The notes under the pieces: generated by a model
What the model was told of the DNA's origin: nothing
What the model saw: the letters and a program-made list of their open reading frames with translations, nothing else
The model's database searches: none
Program-made: the position numbers and the translations under genes
Shown here: positions 16,775 to 47,175 of the stretch, one piece after another
Numbering within the stretch: the stretch's first letter is position 1
Layout: each line of letters starts with the position of its first letter
From: Modicisalibacter tunisiensis
GTDB lineage: Bacteria > Pseudomonadota > Gammaproteobacteria > Pseudomonadales > Halomonadaceae
Direction: 5' to 3'
Length of the DNA stretch: 64,000 bases
Assembly (NCBI RefSeq): GCF_020148005.1
Contig: NZ_JAGXFD010000001.1
Coordinates: 2,073,739 to 2,137,738 of the forward strand

Positions 16775-19549
16775 TCAGCGCGGGGTGGGCGGGACCTTGC
16801 TGGCGGCCTGGGCGGCCTGGTCATTCTGCAGCAGGTCGCGCATGGTGCGCAGGGCGGCCTCGCCACGGCTCTCCAGGGTCTGGTCGAGCCACAGCAGGGC
16901 CTGATCCTGGTTGGCGTCTTCCAGCCCCTGCTGCCAGAGGTAGGCCTTGGCCAGCGCCAGCCGGGCCGTGGGGTGGCCCTGGCGCGCCGCGCGAAACAGG
17001 TATTCCGCGCCCTTGGCGGCATCCTTCTCGACGCCTTCGCCACGCAGATAGGCGCGTCCCAGGGCGGCCTGGGCGCCGGCGTGGCCCTGGTCCGCGGCCC
17101 GGGTCAGCAGCTTGATGCCCTTCTGTTCATCCTGGGTGAGGCCGTCGCGGCCATAGAGCAGCGCGCGCCCCAGGTTGGCCAGCGAGGAGAGGCTGCCGGC
17201 GTTGGCGGCGCGGGTCAGCCACTGCTTGGCCTCGGCCGGATCCTTGTCGACGCCGGTGCCGTTGAGGTATGCCTCGCCCAGCACCTGGGCGGCATAGGCG
17301 TTGCCCTGGCGCGCCGAGCGCTTGAGCAGGGCGATGCCCTTCTGCGGCTGGCGCGACACGCCCTTGCCCTGCAGGTAGGCCTGCCCCAGGGTCTGCATGG
17401 CACCCAGGTTGCCGCCGCGGATGGCCCGCTGGAGCAGCTGCACGCCCCGCTGCGGGTCGGCACTGACATGCTCGCCCCTGAGCAGCATGCCGCCGAGGTC
17501 GGCCATGGCGCCGGTGTGGCCGCGGGCGACGGCGGTCTTCAGGTAATCGAGCCCCTTGTCGACGTCCTTCGGGAAGGGGTTGCCCTTGATGTAGGCCCGT
17601 CCCAGGCTGGCGGCGGCACCGCCGTGGCCGGCGCGGCTGGCCTTGGACAGCCAGCGGTAGGCCTTCTGGACATCCATGGGCACGCCGTTGCTGCCATCGA
17701 GGTAGGCCCGCCCGAGGTCGGCCATTGCCGCGGGATCGCCGAGCCTGGCGGCGTGGATGATGGCGTCGATGTTGCCGGCGCCCTTGCCATGCTTGCGGTA
17801 GAGCCGGGCCAGTGCCAGTTCCGCGGAGTCATGCCCGGCATCGCGGGCTTTTTCCAGCCAGCGCTTGGCCTGACGAAAGTCCCGCGGTACGCCCGTGCCG
17901 TCGCGATAGGCGCGCCCCAGCACCACCATGGCGTAGTCGTCACCCTGGCTGGCGGCCCGGGTCAGCAGGGAAACCGCCTTCTCGCTCTGGCCGCGATCCG
18001 CCAGGGGCCCGTCGAGGTAGGCCTTGCCGAGCGCGGTCATGGCGGTGGTGTCACCGGCCACGACGGCCTTGCGCAGCCAGCGTTCGGCGGCGTCGGGGTT
18101 GGCGGGCAGGGTCTGGCCTTCCAGATAGGCCTCGCCGAGCAGACGGGCGGCGTAGTCCTGCCCCTGCTGTGCCGCCTGCTTCAGCAGCGATTCGGCCTTC
18201 CGGGCATCCGGTGCGACGCCGATGCCCTTGAGATAGGCCTCGCCGAGTTGCGCGGTGGCGTAGCTGCTGCCGGCCTGCTGGCCGCGCTTCAGGTAGTCGA
18301 TCGCCTTGCCGGGCTGGGCCGGGAAGTCCTCCTTGCCGTTCAGGTACAGGTCCCCCAGTACGGCCAGTGCCAGCGGGTCATTCTTCTGCGCGGCACCCTG
18401 CAGCAACTGGATGCCCTGTCGGCGCGCCGGGGGGAGAACGTCACCGGCGATGTAGGCGCGCCCCAGGGTGACGGTGGCGTTGGTCGAGCCCTGATCGGCG
18501 GCCTTCGCCAGCCAGGACTCGGCCTCCTTGGGACGGGGCGTGACCGCCTTGCCGTCGAGCAGCGCCGAGCCCAGGTGGTACATGGACTCGACATCGCCGG
18601 CCTTGGCGGCCTGCTCGAGCATGGCCAGGCCACGCTGAGTCTCGCCCTGCTCGAGCAGGGCCTCGCCGACCTTGCCCAGTGCATCCGGGTCGCCCGAGTC
18701 GGCGGCCTTCATCAGCCAGCGGCGCTGCTCCTCGGGCCGGTAGCCGAGCAGGCCGTCCCGGGCATAGAGGCTGGCCAGGTCGGTCATCGCGCCGACATCG
18801 CCCTTCTGGGCCAGGGCCCTGGCATACTCGGCATAGCGCTGGGCGTAACCCTTGGCCTTGGCCGGGGCGGCCTGATACCAGCCGCCGGGCCGGTAGGCGT
18901 CGGCCAGCTCGCGCAGGGCGCTGCCGTCGCCGGCCTCGACGGCCTTCTGGTAGAGCGCGACCGCACGCTGGGGGTTGCGCTTGATCCCTTCGCCCCGCGC
19001 CAGCATGCCGGCGAGCTTGGCGGCGGCCTGGTCGGCCTCGCCGGCTTCGATGGCCTGGCGATAGAGGTAGAAGGCCAGGGTGGGGTTGCGCTCGACACCG
19101 TCACCGTCGAGGTAGAGATCCCCCAGCTTCACGGAGGCATTGCCCAGCGACGAATTGGGCCGGTGCAGGGCCTTGGCGTAGTACTTGGCGGCCAGTGCCG
19201 GATCCCGGGGCACGCCCTGGCCCTTGTCGTAGAGCTTGCCCAGGTCGTAGTAGGCAGGCAGCATGCCCTCGCGTCCCAGGGCCTTGAAGCTGGCGATGGC
19301 CTTCTCGTACTGGCCCTTTTCGGCGGCCTGGCGGGCGAAGTCCATGCGTCCCCAGTCCATGCCGCCCATGTCGACGGGGCGGCCGCCGTCGAACCAGTCG
19401 ACGTAGGCGGCCGGCACCGGTGGTACCGCAGCGTCGCGCTGTACCTCGTGCGTGGCGCAGCCGGCCATCGCGAGCAGCAGCGGCGATACGCGCATCAGGT
19501 GCCGCCATGGGCTGGCCCGGCGATCTCGGCGAAGCGGATGTCCAAGCAT
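16775..19549 (-). CDS. AlgK-like outer-membrane lipoprotein made of Sel1 repeats (924 aa)
   Basis: The N-terminus has a basic region and a lipobox (LLLAMAGC), so the protein should be lipidated and face the periplasm. Nearly all the rest is a run of about 22-24 Sel1/TPR-like repeats of 36 residues with the pattern A..LG.AYL.G.GV..D...A..W...A. AlgK of alginate producers is a Sel1-repeat lipoprotein scaffold of about 475 residues, so this one is nearly twice as long. It is the last gene of the operon, 45 bp after the PL5 lyase. It probably scaffolds the secretion complex or recruits the lyases; this is inference. ATG 19495 (MRVSPLLLAMAGC) is an alternative start. Confidence 0.85.
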   Translation of the reverse strand: MLGHPLRRDRRASPWRHLMRVSPLLLAMAGCATHEVQRDAAVPPVPAAYVDWFDGGRPVDMGGMDWGRMDFARQAAEKGQYEKAIASFKALGREGMLPAYYDLGKLYDKGQGVPRDPALAAKYYAKALHRPNSSLGNASVKLGDLYLDGDGVERNPTLAFYLYRQAIEAGEADQAAAKLAGMLARGEGIKRNPQRAVALYQKAVEAGDGSALRELADAYRPGGWYQAAPAKAKGYAQRYAEYARALAQKGDVGAMTDLASLYARDGLLGYRPEEQRRWLMKAADSGDPDALGKVGEALLEQGETQRGLAMLEQAAKAGDVESMYHLGSALLDGKAVTPRPKEAESWLAKAADQGSTNATVTLGRAYIAGDVLPPARRQGIQLLQGAAQKNDPLALAVLGDLYLNGKEDFPAQPGKAIDYLKRGQQAGSSYATAQLGEAYLKGIGVAPDARKAESLLKQAAQQGQDYAARLLGEAYLEGQTLPANPDAAERWLRKAVVAGDTTAMTALGKAYLDGPLADRGQSEKAVSLLTRAASQGDDYAMVVLGRAYRDGTGVPRDFRQAKRWLEKARDAGHDSAELALARLYRKHGKGAGNIDAIIHAARLGDPAAMADLGRAYLDGSNGVPMDVQKAYRWLSKASRAGHGGAAASLGRAYIKGNPFPKDVDKGLDYLKTAVARGHTGAMADLGGMLLRGEHVSADPQRGVQLLQRAIRGGNLGAMQTLGQAYLQGKGVSRQPQKGIALLKRSARQGNAYAAQVLGEAYLNGTGVDKDPAEAKQWLTRAANAGSLSSLANLGRALLYGRDGLTQDEQKGIKLLTRAADQGHAGAQAALGRAYLRGEGVEKDAAKGAEYLFRAARQGHPTARLALAKAYLWQQGLEDANQDQALLWLDQTLESRGEAALRTMRDLLQNDQAAQAASKVPPTPR

Positions 19550-45895: not shown

Positions 45896-46267
45896 TCAGA
45901 ACTCGCGGCGGCCCTCCTCGAGGGCCAGGCGGGCGGCCAGGTGGTCGCGCAGCGCGGTCAGCTCCTCGCGTCCGGTGCGCGACAGCAGCGAGCCGCCCTG
46001 CTGGGACCGCAGGGAGCGGCCGTGCTCTTCCATGATGCGCTGCGCGCTGCGGCGCACCCCCTCGAGATAGGCGTCGTGACGGATCGGATAGCCGACCACG
46101 GTATGCCATTCGGACTCGGAGGCCTGGCCGTTGAGCACGCGCTCGAACAGGCGCAGCAGGTGCTGCGGTTCGGTCCGGTAACGCGGAGTGCGCGCCAGCA
46201 TCAGCATGGCGATGCTGCCGCCGACGACGAGCAGGGTGACGAGGAAGATCAGCAAATATAGCGCCAT
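45896..46267 (-). CDS. hypothetical membrane-anchored protein, 123 aa
   Basis: The protein has an N-terminal membrane helix (LYLLIFLVTLLVVGGSIAML) and a soluble, charged tail (RLFERVLNGQASESEWHTVV, SLLSRTGREELTALRDHLAA). The family is not recognised. The ATG at 46267 follows a GGCC-rich leader without a strong ribosome site. The open frame runs upstream through the tRNA repeats and the tRNA itself, so the extension is not a real gene. It lies 20 bp from the end of the trailer repeats and may be cotranscribed with tRNA-Gly. Confidence 0.6.
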   Translation of the reverse strand: MALYLLIFLVTLLVVGGSIAMLMLARTPRYRTEPQHLLRLFERVLNGQASESEWHTVVGYPIRHDAYLEGVRRSAQRIMEEHGRSLRSQQGGSLLSRTGREELTALRDHLAARLALEEGRREF

Positions 46268-46286
46268 GGAGACAGGCCGAAAAGTT

Positions 46287-46454
46287 GAGAGCGGGCGACG
46301 GGAGTCGATCGGGTGGCGCACCACCGGGCTGGCGCACCAGATCGCGACCCTTGGGATTATGCAAGGAATCTGGAGCGGGCAACGAGATTCGATCGGATGG
46401 CGCACCACCGGGCTGGCGCACCAGATCGCGACCCTTGGGACTATGCAAGGAATC
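46287..46454 (-). repeat. two 84-bp tandem repeats derived from the tRNA-Gly 3' end
   Basis: Copies lie at 46371-46454 and 46287-46370. Each unit starts, on the minus strand side nearest the tRNA, with a linker and ends with a copy of the last 22 nt of the tRNA (TTCGAATCTCGTTGCCCGCT plus CC or CCA in the real gene). Copies 1 and 2 differ at only a few positions. The layout repeats the trailer repeats of E. coli tyrT (rtT RNA), in which each repeat also carries a tRNA 3' piece. Confidence 0.85.
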
Positions 46455-46530
46455 TGGAGCGGGCAACGAGATTCGAACTCGCGACCCTCAGCTTGGGAAG
46501 CTGATGCTCTACCAACTGAGCTATACCCGC
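46455..46530 (-). tRNA. tRNA-Gly (anticodon CCC)
   Basis: On the minus strand the gene reads GCGGGTATAGCTCAGTTGGT ... CAGC-TTCCCAA-GCTG ... GGTTCGA-type GAGTTCGAATC ... TGCCCGC-T-CCA. The acceptor stem pairs GCGGGTA with TGCCCGC (one G-T), the anticodon loop TTCCCAA gives CCC, the T loop is TTCGAAT, and CCA is encoded. Length is 76 nt including CCA. The CCC isoacceptor reads GGG glycine codons. The rest of the unit carries the trailer repeats. Confidence 0.95.
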
Positions 46531-46541
46531 TCGGCGGCTCG

Positions 46542-46571
46542 ATCATAATGAAAGTACGCCCGCCAAGGCAA
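46542..46571 (-). promoter_or_regulatory. tRNA-Gly promoter
   Basis: On the minus strand TTGCCT (46566-46571), an 18-bp spacer and TATGAT (46542-46547) lie 11 bp before the mature tRNA 5' end. A GC-rich discriminator (CGAGCCGCCGA) follows, as expected for a stringently controlled tRNA promoter. Confidence 0.7.
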
Positions 46572-46715
46572 GCCCCGGTCGTCATTGTTACATTGTGATA
46601 CAAAACAGTTCGTCCCGGGAGGGAGAAATCCGGCGAGGCTGTGGTCACAGGAATGAGCGCAATTTTCCAGCAGTCGCGGAAAATGGCGTCTTTGCTTACT
46701 TTATTCGATCCCTTG

Positions 46716-46748
46716 ACCGCCACATCATCCCGATGTGGCGGTTTTTTT
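46716..46748 (+). terminator. strong orphan terminator on the plus strand
   Basis: ACCGCCACATC, 5-nt loop, GATGTGGCGGT then seven T, all on the plus strand. The neighbouring genes run on the minus strand, and the minus strand has no T tract after the stem. So the terminator should belong to a plus-strand transcript starting between 46572 and 46716, for which no ORF is visible: a candidate small RNA. Confidence 0.8.
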
Positions 46749-46767
46749 CGCGAGGATGCTCGGCGGG

Positions 46768-47175
46768 TCAGTGGCCGCGCATCTGCAGGATGGCGCTGAC
46801 CACATCGCGCCGGGTCACGATCCCGACCAGCCGTTCGCCCTCGACGACCGGGTAGACCTTGGGCTTGGTGCCCAGCATCTCCTGGGCCAGGTCGGCGATG
46901 CTCTTGTTGGGCGTCACCGTCAGCACCTCGTGGCGCATGAGATCGCGTACCGGCGCGGGTTCATCGTCGAAGTAGGCACTGTCGAGCAGCTTGCCCATGA
47001 CGTCCATTTCCGAGATGAAGCCGATCAGGTGGTCGCGCTCGTCGACCACGGGGGCGCCGGGGAGCCGGTGCAGGGCCAGGCCGGCGACCAGGGTGGCCAC
47101 GGATGTGTTGCCGGTGACCCGGTAGCAGTCGCGGGACATGATGTCGCGCACGACGGTGGGTGCCTTGTTGCTCAT
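46768..47175 (-). CDS. CBS-domain pair protein
   Basis: The 135-residue protein consists of two CBS domains (VRDIMSRDCYRVTGNTSVAT with GFISEMDVMGKLL; VRDLMRHEVLTVTPNKSIAD with GIVTRRDVVSAIL). Such free-standing pairs bind adenine nucleotides and regulate partner proteins. It lies 86 bp after the flavoprotein gene on the same strand, with a short GGAGGC site before the ATG. The partner is unknown; the flavoprotein is one possibility by position. Confidence 0.85.
   Translation of the reverse strand: MSNKAPTVVRDIMSRDCYRVTGNTSVATLVAGLALHRLPGAPVVDERDHLIGFISEMDVMGKLLDSAYFDDEPAPVRDLMRHEVLTVTPNKSIADLAQEMLGTKPKVYPVVEGERLVGIVTRRDVVSAILQMRGH

What the first reader, a model, noticed from the sequence alone, without database searches (positions are those of the whole stretch)
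46287..46530. tRNA-Gly(CCC) followed by tandem repeats of its own 3' end
Two 84-bp repeats after the tRNA each hold a copy of the last about 22 nt of the gene, including the CCA region. The plan is like E. coli tyrT/rtT trailer repeats, which arose independently of this species as far as I know. They may act as tRNA trailer small RNAs, decoys for tRNA-processing enzymes, or as scars of integrations.
Basis: partly seen in the sequence, partly recalled or inferred. Interest (0 to 1): 0.6.

Follow-up and report, generated by a model that had tools for sequence, protein, structure and literature searches.

The report
tRNA-tail repeats with conserved folded core
Behind a glycine tRNA gene sit two short repeats that each end in a copy (one perfect, one decayed) of the tRNA's own tail; the same kind of unit, with a conserved folded core, follows glycine (and sometimes aspartate) tRNA genes in several families of marine and salt-loving bacteria and looks like a distant counterpart of the little-understood tRNA-linked repeats of E. 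coli.

Summary
The arrangement is real. On the minus strand, tRNA-Gly(CCC) (46530-46455) is followed by two 84-bp units; unit 1 ends in a 22/22 copy of the tRNA tail, unit 2 in a decayed 17/22 copy without CCA. A unit is a tRNA 3' part split in its T-loop by a hairpin module. Such units occur in 134 of 201 genomes of the family and 18 genomes of five other families of the order. Of 168 units, 157 lie 3' of tRNA-Gly on the same strand, 2 of tRNA-Asp with Asp-type tails. The core shows Watson-Crick covariation, including pairs crossing the hairpin, though a cautious tree simulation is only borderline. Integration scars are not supported. The plan matches E. coli tRNA-linked repeats (TLRs; PMC8144298): structured core plus tail of the upstream tRNA, with an unrelated core. 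Best reading: TLR-like trailer small RNAs released because the tail copy is a tRNA 3'-processing signal. Expression and function are untested; a neutral or selfish repeat remains a serious rival. New variant of a known, poorly understood kind.

The parts
46542..46571 (-). Promoter-like site (TTGCCT, 18 nt, TATGAT) upstream of the tRNA
   Evidence: 9 of 12 consensus; 1 found in the region, shuffles mean 0.2
46455..46530 (-). tRNA-Gly(CCC), CCA encoded
   Evidence: ARAGORN; Rfam RF00005 71.6 bits
46371..46454 (-). Unit 1 of the tRNA-tail repeat (84 nt)
   Evidence: there in a register two bases on; core model 37.3 bits
46371..46392 (-). Tail copy in unit 1, 22/22 identical to the tRNA-Gly(CCC) 3' end including CCA
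46405..46433 (-). Conserved core match in unit 1 (GGTCGCGA side plus first hairpin module); a second hairpin module follows, up to the tail
   Evidence: 37.3 bits, E 8.7e-7; alignment A2
46287..46370 (-). Unit 2 of the repeat, 94% identical to unit 1
46287..46308 (-). Degenerate tail copy in unit 2 (17/22, CTC instead of CCA)
   Evidence: sequence
46321..46349 (-). Conserved core match in unit 2
   Evidence: 37.3 bits
45896..46267 (-). 123-aa ORF (P0001) starting about 20 nt after unit 2; no terminator-like site between tRNA and ORF on this strand, so the units may lie in its 5' leader
   Evidence: (no Pfam family)

Best explanation
The two repeats belong to a family of trailer elements that work like the E. 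coli tRNA-linked repeats (TLRs). [quoted passage not shown] Transcribed with the tRNA, the tail copy would be cut and trimmed by the enzymes that make the tRNA 3' end (RNase E and 3' exonucleases), so each unit is released as a discrete small RNA of about 70-125 nt with a tRNA-like end. The tail is kept like its tRNA by gene conversion and/or selection for processing; the core is the active part and is selected for its fold. Shown: anatomy, distribution, same-strand position after tRNA-Gly or tRNA-Asp, tail tracking, core covariation. Inferred: transcription of the unit (strongest where a unit lies between two tRNAs of one cluster), processing at the tail, the small RNA itself. Not known: what the RNA binds.
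For: 157 of 168 units have tRNA-Gly as nearest upstream same-strand tRNA (154 GCC, 3 CCC), 2 have tRNA-Asp; 61 have a tRNA-Glu and 39 a tRNA-Cys within 400 nt downstream on the same strand, i.e. lie inside tRNA clusters. 155 of 168 end in CCA, and the six bases after it are as A/T-rich (0.62, 155 units) as after the tRNAs (0.65, 157). Tails track the local tRNA: TTGCCCGC after CCC genes, mostly TTTCCCGC after GCC genes, and where the tRNA T-stem reads TCTCC 12 of 14 units read TCTCC; Asp-type tails after tRNA-Asp. Core covariation: unit positions 13-22, 15-20, 18-27 and 24-28 co-change on the same branch in 2 of 2, 2 of 2, 3 of 3, 3 of 3 cases on the tree from all columns (random placement: means 0.09-0.30, maxima 1, 2, 2, 2), and in 15 of 15, 2 of 2, 7 of 7, 16 of 17 on a tree built without those columns (means 3.9, 0.14, 1.2, 5.3; maxima 9, 2, 5, 11), counted on the column with fewer changes. 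Presence in 134 of 201 family genomes and 18 genomes of five other families. E. coli TLRs show the same plan, and RrB, a TLR RNA, is a processed 173-nt transcript ending 3 nt past its tail copy, which its authors attribute to RNase E (PMC8144298).
Against: No RNA data for any of these loci. 67 of 201 family genomes lack a unit at E<=1e-8, so it is dispensable. Unit 2 in the window has lost its CCA, and it scores 28.6 bits with the 50-nt model, so decayed units like it fall below the 35-bit cut and are missing from my counts. The unit fold is not unusually stable against shuffles (z -1.55 and -1.72). Tree-simulated covariation is only borderline (E 0.035, 0.075, 0.20 for 13-22, 24-28, 18-27; 7.5 for 15-20; the tree used the same columns, which is conservative). 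In the named-structure count two of five measures do not beat shuffles (pairs with double change 61/500, further pair types 450/500). In a Saccharospirillum-type locus (L067) a terminator-like site lies between tRNA and unit (by eye also in L083 and L085), so only read-through would transcribe it. The hairpin module also sits in a dispersed MITE-like repeat, which a DNA-level explanation would predict. The tail-conservation figures are biased because the search model contains the tail.
Confidence: 0.55

Rival explanations
1. Non-functional or selfish DNA repeat. A tRNA 3' part was duplicated, a small palindromic module inserted into its T-loop, and unequal recombination plus gene conversion through the roughly 22-bp identity with the tRNA tail keeps the arrays expanding, shrinking and looking like the tRNA.
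For: Copy number varies from 1 to 7 per tRNA gene (units of 35 bits or more); decayed copies exist (window unit 2; by eye L029, L030 and L031); 67 of 201 family genomes lack it at E<=1e-8; the module is present in some and precisely absent in at least one other copy of a MITE-like repeat (compare L239 with L208); modules are themselves doubled or tripled (L008).
Against: Compensatory changes in the core, including pairs outside the simple hairpin; persistence across six or more families although such direct repeats should delete easily (inference); nearest upstream tRNA is Gly or Asp on the same strand in 159 of 168 units; none behind the other tRNAs of this genome.
Confidence: 0.3
2. Scars (attR-like remnants) of elements that integrated into the 3' end of tRNA-Gly.
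For: tRNA 3' ends are classical att sites (established knowledge); a 22-bp identity block resembles an att core; 2 of 93 unit loci (L031, L135), and L029 with a decayed trailer, do have an integrase-like frame in the fetched stretch.
Against: In all three of those loci the integrase frame lies beyond tRNA-Leu(TAA) at the far end of the Gly-Cys-Leu cluster, not at the unit between Gly and Cys. In the window's genome seven Phage_integrase hits, none within 340 kb of the three unit-bearing places. No exact pattern match in 2.9 million viral contigs; phage matches at chance level, E 0.6; among plasmids one real match, E 6e-7, on a 1.8-Mb Halomonas replicon that I did not inspect. Units contain a covarying core, recur in many families, and duplicate the T-stem 5' side too. 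Limits: flanks in relatives were mostly 1.5 kb and only two of the five query frames were the integrases themselves.
Confidence: 0.03
3. The T-loop module is a tiny mobile or copied hairpin whose structure matters in single-stranded DNA (replication or recombination), and the tRNA tails are one of its hosts; the covariation reflects ssDNA folding, not RNA.
For: Precise 16-nt presence/absence between MITE copies directly before TCGGAATCC, matching its place before TCGAATC in the tRNA-tail units; doubling and tripling of the module at that same spot (L008).
Against: Outside this genus I found the core only in tRNA-tail units, apart from two chance hits (exact pattern or E<=1e-4, so weaker copies would be missed; the loci were not all inspected); one orientation relative to the tRNA; no transposase was looked for.
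Confidence: 0.1

Closest known systems
E. coli tRNA-linked repeats (TLRs: rtT/RttR behind tyrTV, repeats behind Lys and Arg tRNA genes, RrA/RrB/RrF behind 5S; Egan & Landy 1978 and Rudd 1999 as cited in PMC8144298)
   Same: Located directly 3' of a stable-RNA gene in the same operon; end in an 18-22 bp copy of that gene's 3' end; a shared structured core with the tail switched to the local tRNA (Tyr, Lys and Arg in E. coli; Gly and Asp here); one to several copies per locus; some sit behind a first terminator (rrn T1/T2 in PMC8144298; L067 here).
   Different: The E. coli core (by eye: hairpins GTTGC..GCAAC and GCCC-GAA-GGGC, then GCGAAGC) has no detectable relation to the core here. Here the tail copy is 22 nt and is preceded by the T-stem 5' side, so the unit is a tRNA 3' part split in its T-loop. 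In the E. coli Tyr units I see only a 9-nt T-arm match before the insert, not above shuffles in a free local alignment. RrA/B/F homologues were found by their authors only in Enterobacteriales (PMC8144298).
3'ETS-leuZ sponge RNA of E. coli glyW-cysT-leuZ (described in the PMC8144298 Introduction)
   Same: Small RNA cut by RNase E from a tRNA precursor trailer; the same Gly-Cys-Leu cluster type carries units in this family.
   Different: 3'ETS-leuZ lies after leuZ and, as described there, base-pairs with RyhB and RybB; my scan of that region found no tail copy. Here the units lie between Gly and Cys.
REP/BIME and MITE palindromic repeats
   Same: GC-rich hairpin modules, tandem modules, dispersed copies; the module occurs in a MITE-like repeat of this genus.
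   Different: The tRNA-tail units are tied to tRNA genes in one orientation and carry a tRNA tail.

Membership tests
tRNA-linked repeat (TLR) in the E. coli sense | Located immediately downstream of a tRNA or rRNA gene in its transcription unit | tested here: met
   nearest upstream same-strand tRNA is Gly for 157 of 168 units and Asp for 2; 4 have Glu (one locus, Gly one gene further up) and 5 none, all five near contig ends; window units directly after tRNA-Gly(CCC), no terminator-like site between. Co-transcription itself is inferred.
tRNA-linked repeat (TLR) in the E. coli sense | 3' end identical over 18-19 bp to the 3' end of the gene upstream | tested here: met
   22/22 for window unit 1; the last 12 nt are identical to those of the upstream tRNA in 114 of 163 units that have one in the locus (111 TTTCCCGCTCCA, 3 TTGCCCGCTCCA), so not every unit meets it; window unit 2 is only 17/22
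tRNA-linked repeat (TLR) in the E. coli sense | One to five copies per locus, at several different stable-RNA genes with the tail switched accordingly | tested here: met
   1-7 per tRNA gene; Gly(GCC), Gly(CCC) and Asp(GTC) hosts with matching tails (one of the two Asp units of L087 has only part of the tail)
tRNA-linked repeat (TLR) in the E. coli sense | Homologous core sequence with E. coli TLRs (my criterion, for membership by descent) | tested here: not met
   core model R2 finds nothing better than E 0.63 in 11 E. coli tRNA regions, so filed as TLR-like, not as descended from E. coli TLRs
tRNA-linked repeat (TLR) in the E. coli sense | Transcribed and processed into a discrete RNA (shown for RrA/B/F) | not testable with these tools
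   no RNA data held
CsrA-titrating RNA (as RrB) | Conserved GGA at the hairpin loop | tested here: not met
   76 of 136 single-module units have GGA there, 52 have GGT
Rfam family (RtT or other) | Covariance-model match to the unit | tested here: not met
   only tRNA itself scores above its gathering threshold in window 46000-47000 and in seven relatives' loci
Integration scar at a tRNA gene | Integrase gene or element remnant next to the duplicated tRNA end | tested here: not met
   window genome: nearest integrase more than 340 kb away. Relatives: integrase-like frames in 2 of 93 unit loci, both beyond tRNA-Leu, not at the unit; short flanks, two true integrase queries

The most novel reading that the evidence does not exclude
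TLR-type trailer RNAs are a general, convergent class in gammaproteobacteria: different structured cores are plugged into a copied tRNA tail, which serves as a universal 'cut me out' signal, giving small RNAs whose level follows tRNA synthesis. In Oceanospirillales the core is a compact hairpin with crossing Watson-Crick pairs (pseudoknot-like), conserved over at least six families, transferable between tRNA-Gly and tRNA-Asp genes and shared with a MITE.
Probability: 0.35. Interest if true: 0.75.

Novelty: new variant of a known kind. Interest (0 to 1): 0.55.

Why it matters
E. coli tRNA-linked repeats were first described in 1978 and, as of the introduction of PMC8144298 (2021), had no known function; that paper itself proposes a role in CsrA tuning for RrA/B/F only. 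A second, sequence-unrelated family with the same plan in another order, with natural variation in copy number, host tRNA and core, turns the question 'what is the tail copy for, and what does the core do?' into a comparative and experimental problem. The covarying core gives concrete base pairs to probe and mutate, and the switch of tail from Gly to Asp predicts that the tail alone sets the processing.

Tried and rejected
Integration scars: not supported (limits stated under that rival). A T-arm-like fold of the unit (GCGAG/CTCGT kept as in tRNA): unlikely, because tail position T62 departs from the tRNA in 22% of units and left-side changes such as GTGAG next to CTCCT break the stem. The RNAalifold outer stem GGUCG/CGGUC: not supported, since its column 27 covaries with loop position 18 instead. 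A CsrA sponge as conserved role: GGA in only 76 of 136. Rfam: nothing but tRNA above threshold. Chance: two hits of the genome-wide pattern scan, Rhodococcus L108 and Thermoplasmata L141, show no tRNA near the match and are taken as chance.

Several listings were capped (for example 15 of 75 papers shown, 15 of 53, 10 of 47). No title or abstract shown is about such repeats in Halomonas or other Oceanospirillales; that is not proof that none is in print. PMC8144298 surfaced. Seen of it: Introduction, first of two parts of the Discussion, and passages. PMC12306157, PMC4606813 and PMC7661048: passages only. Egan & Landy 1978 and Rudd 1999: not seen, cited through PMC8144298.

Rows dropped: one search covered 93 of the 144 loci then held (left out: apparent duplicates and overlapping stretches, tRNA-Gly loci without a unit, the two chance hits). 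171 of its matches, those of 35 bits or more, were carried forward; three with identical surroundings were dropped, leaving 168. One search used 64 of 76 distinct 30-nt cores from units of 48-51 nt (12 off-register cores listed there). Searches used 66 distinct 50-nt units. One search used 34 hand-picked cores of the 64.

In one search I scanned 49 E. coli tRNA genes in 11 regions, chosen by remembered coordinates, not the whole genome; my 5S check there printed no tail copy, although PMC8144298 describes one behind rrfB.

Full report
OBSERVATION. tRNA-Gly(CCC) lies on the minus strand, 46530-46455, behind a promoter-like site. Two direct 84-bp repeats follow it, 94% identical. The one next to the tRNA ends in a perfect copy of the last 22 nt of the tRNA including CCA; the second has 17 of 22 and CTC instead of CCA (counted by me). 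With the 22-nt tail as query, 330 nt downstream of each of 62 tRNA genes of the genome were scanned. tRNA-Gly(CCC) and two tRNA-Gly(GCC) genes that share one unit score 22, a further tRNA-Gly(GCC) scores 18 (one-base indel), and the other 58 score 14 or less, within the range of shuffles. So the feature is real and in this genome confined to tRNA-Gly.

ANATOMY. Written 5' to 3' with the tRNA, a unit is a linker of about 20 nt or more, then AGGGTCGCGA (tRNA positions about 44-53), then one to three hairpin modules (stem such as GCTGG/CCAGC, loop NNCG, followed by CCGG), then TCGAATCTCG...CCA, the rest of the tRNA. The module is thus placed in the T-loop of a copied tRNA 3' part. Single-module units are about 50 nt long without the linker (A1), double-module ones 65 nt (A2). 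The window units have two modules, and unit 2 of the closest relative (L008) has three. Rfam knows none of this.

DISTRIBUTION. In the 14 held genomes of the genus, 12 have a unit at E<=1e-8, typically after tRNA-Gly(GCC) in Glu-Gly or Gly-Cys-Leu clusters; after tRNA-Gly(CCC), seen in all 14, only three have intact units (G000, G006, G004; by eye). A covariance model (R1) separates units (35 bits or more) from real tRNA-Gly bodies (33.8 or less); decayed units such as window unit 2 (28.6 bits) fall below that line. At E<=1e-8, 134 of 201 genomes and 14 of 24 genera of the family have a unit. In the order, 27 of 341 genomes do, 18 of them outside the family, in five other families. Across the class, 2 of 369 sampled genomes do, both in the family itself. 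A pattern scan of 84,980 species genomes gave 48 stretches: all but two are in Halomonas and related genera, Alcanivorax/Alloalcanivorax, Saccharospirillum, Natronospirillum, Thalassolituus, Aliikangiella, or MAGs named as Alcanivorax, Halomonadaceae, Gammaproteobacteria or Pseudomonadota. Six species looked up are all Oceanospirillales, from six families; that the other genera are Halomonadaceae is recalled. Contig lengths equal to Modicisalibacter coralii and M. muralis records suggest that the window's genus is Modicisalibacter rather than Halomonas in the narrow sense (inference).

CONTEXT. Of 168 units in 93 loci, the nearest upstream same-strand tRNA is Gly(GCC) for 154, Gly(CCC) for 3, Asp(GTC) for 2, Glu for 4 (one locus, with tRNA-Gly one gene further up), and none for 5 (all five within about 250 nt of a contig end). 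61 are followed within 400 nt by tRNA-Glu, 39 by tRNA-Cys. One tRNA gene is followed by 1 to 7 units; Aliikangiella marina has seven after one gene. 155 of 168 end in CCA, and the next six bases are as A/T-rich as those after the tRNAs. L083 and L085 look the same by eye, but the scan listed only a terminator after the unit in L085 (plus the unit's own hairpin) and none besides the unit's hairpin in L083.

TAIL TRACKING. The tail follows its own tRNA: TTGCCCGC after the three CCC-borne units, TTTCCCGC after most GCC genes; where the tRNA T-stem reads TCTCC, 12 of 14 units read TCTCC too. After tRNA-Asp the same core carries an Asp-type tail (G473 and G455; G273), complete in some of these units and partial in others. 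The left part tracks less well: GGTCGTGAG is the commonest form where the tRNA has GGGTCGGGA. Mismatch with the tRNA is 0.6% at the last two bases of CCA and highest at two T-arm positions (25% and 22%), which argues against a conserved T-stem. These rates are biased downward because the search model contains the tail.

CORE STRUCTURE. In 64 distinct cores the strongest mutual information is at core indices 21-25, 10-19 and 15-24 (unit positions 24-28, 13-22, 18-27). Pairs 13-22 and 15-20 are the hairpin; 18-27 joins the loop to the 3' flank and so crosses it, and 24-28 crosses 18-27. Between cores that otherwise differ by at most one base, 18-27 shows 39 double and no single changes, 24-28 shows 24 double and 18 single. 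On a tree from all columns, 2 of 2, 2 of 2, 3 of 3 and 3 of 3 changes coincide on the same branch (13-22, 15-20, 18-27, 24-28); on a tree without those columns 15 of 15, 2 of 2, 7 of 7 and 16 of 17. Random placement never reached these numbers except for 15-20, where it reached 2. Cross-combinations of the two crossing pairs (18-28, 24-27) coincide 0 or 1 times, so these two pairs mostly change on different branches. The cautious simulation gives E 0.035, 0.075 and 0.20 for 13-22, 24-28 and 18-27 and no support for 15-20 (7.5), on a tree that used the same columns. With the pairs named, 99.2% of cells pair against 89.1% in shuffles and the covariation score is 0.41 against 0.20 (0 of 500 shuffles), while two of the five measures do not beat shuffles (34 hand-picked cores). 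The three-dimensional arrangement is unresolved: a one-nucleotide linker seems too short for a classical pseudoknot with a full 5-bp stem, so part of the stem may open or the pairs may form between molecules (inference).

SECOND HOST OF THE MODULE. A core-only model (R2) finds, in the window's genome at E<=0.05, only the four core sites of the units. In relatives it also finds a dispersed repeat with imperfect terminal inverted repeats. A DNA search matches that repeat in 13 of 14 genomes of the genus, with 4 matches in the window's genome and up to 42 in one relative, partial matches included. The module is recognised in 16 of the 30 loci fetched there; one copy of the window's genome (L226) carries a variant module that the models missed, another (L239) lacks precisely these 16 nt. 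Whether the MITE took the module from the tRNA-tail units or the reverse is open; the wider spread of the tRNA-tail form favours the first.

KNOWN RELATIVES. E. [quoted passage not shown] three of them, RrA/B/F, are processed RNAs that interact with Hfq and CsrA, and the authors propose that the tail copy is an RNase E signal (PMC8144298). In 49 E. coli tRNA genes of 11 regions I find a tail copy after 11: 2 Tyr, 6 Lys (five in one cluster, and lysV) and 3 Arg. They share a core unlike the one here: R2 gives nothing better than E 0.63 there. So the likeness is one of plan and probably of working, not of descent. rtT has a 9-nt match to the T-arm 5' side before its insert, but a free local alignment is not above shuffles.

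INTEGRATION. No integrase within 340 kb of the three unit-bearing places of this genome. In relatives, two integrase frames of this genome were used as queries (with three other frames that proved not to be the integrases) over 93 unit loci, mostly with 1.5-kb flanks: L031 and L135 hold an integrase-like frame, as does L029 (decayed trailer, searched as an extra). In all three it lies beyond tRNA-Leu(TAA), the last gene of the Gly-Cys-Leu cluster, while the unit lies between Gly and Cys. That is what integration into tRNA-Leu would look like, not a scar at tRNA-Gly.

JUDGEMENT. The units are best read as TLR-like trailer small RNAs with a conserved, probably functional core. The decisive evidence, an RNA ending at the tail copy, is missing, and a selfish or neutral repeat kept in step with the tRNA by gene conversion remains a serious rival.

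Noticed in passing
L094, from 1182 and from 1288 to the tRNA at 1394; similar stretches in L068, L085 and L219 (Saccharospirillum-type genomes): Upstream of the real tRNA-Gly(GCC) lie one or two copies of a tRNA-Gly 5' part with an 8-nt anticodon loop (TTGACCGA or TTGTCCGA) and an insert in the variable region, lacking the 3' acceptor strand: a mirror image of the 3' units.
   Followed up: partly
L067, about 1589-1766: A full-length pseudo-tRNA-Gly that has the 8-nt anticodon loop, the variable-region insert and a T-loop hairpin together, interrupted in the acceptor strand; it may show what the 3' units derive from.
   Followed up: partly
L226 (G000:C1:435404-435563), L239 (G000:C1:3024816-3024906), L208-L215: Dispersed MITE-like repeat of this genus with imperfect terminal inverted repeats, with or without the 16-nt hairpin module of the tRNA-tail units; four matches in the window's genome, up to 42 in a relative.
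   Followed up: partly
L218 (G308:C32, about 1610200): An Asp-type unit (tail of tRNA-Asp) with no tRNA called in the roughly 1 kb around it: an orphan, perhaps after loss of the tRNA.
   Followed up: no
L029, L031, L135: An integrase-like frame lies beyond tRNA-Leu(TAA) at the end of the Gly-Cys-Leu cluster; in L029 and L031 the match reaches to within about 60 nt of that tRNA, and the trailer after tRNA-Gly is decayed in those two.
   Followed up: partly
window 45896-46267 (-): 123-aa ORF with an N-terminal hydrophobic stretch and no Pfam match, starting about 20 nt after unit 2, possibly co-transcribed with the tRNA.
   Followed up: partly
window 17169-17260 (+): ARAGORN calls a 92-nt tRNA-Ala(GGC) here, but the Rfam tRNA search of the genome does not list it; probably a false call.
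   Followed up: partly
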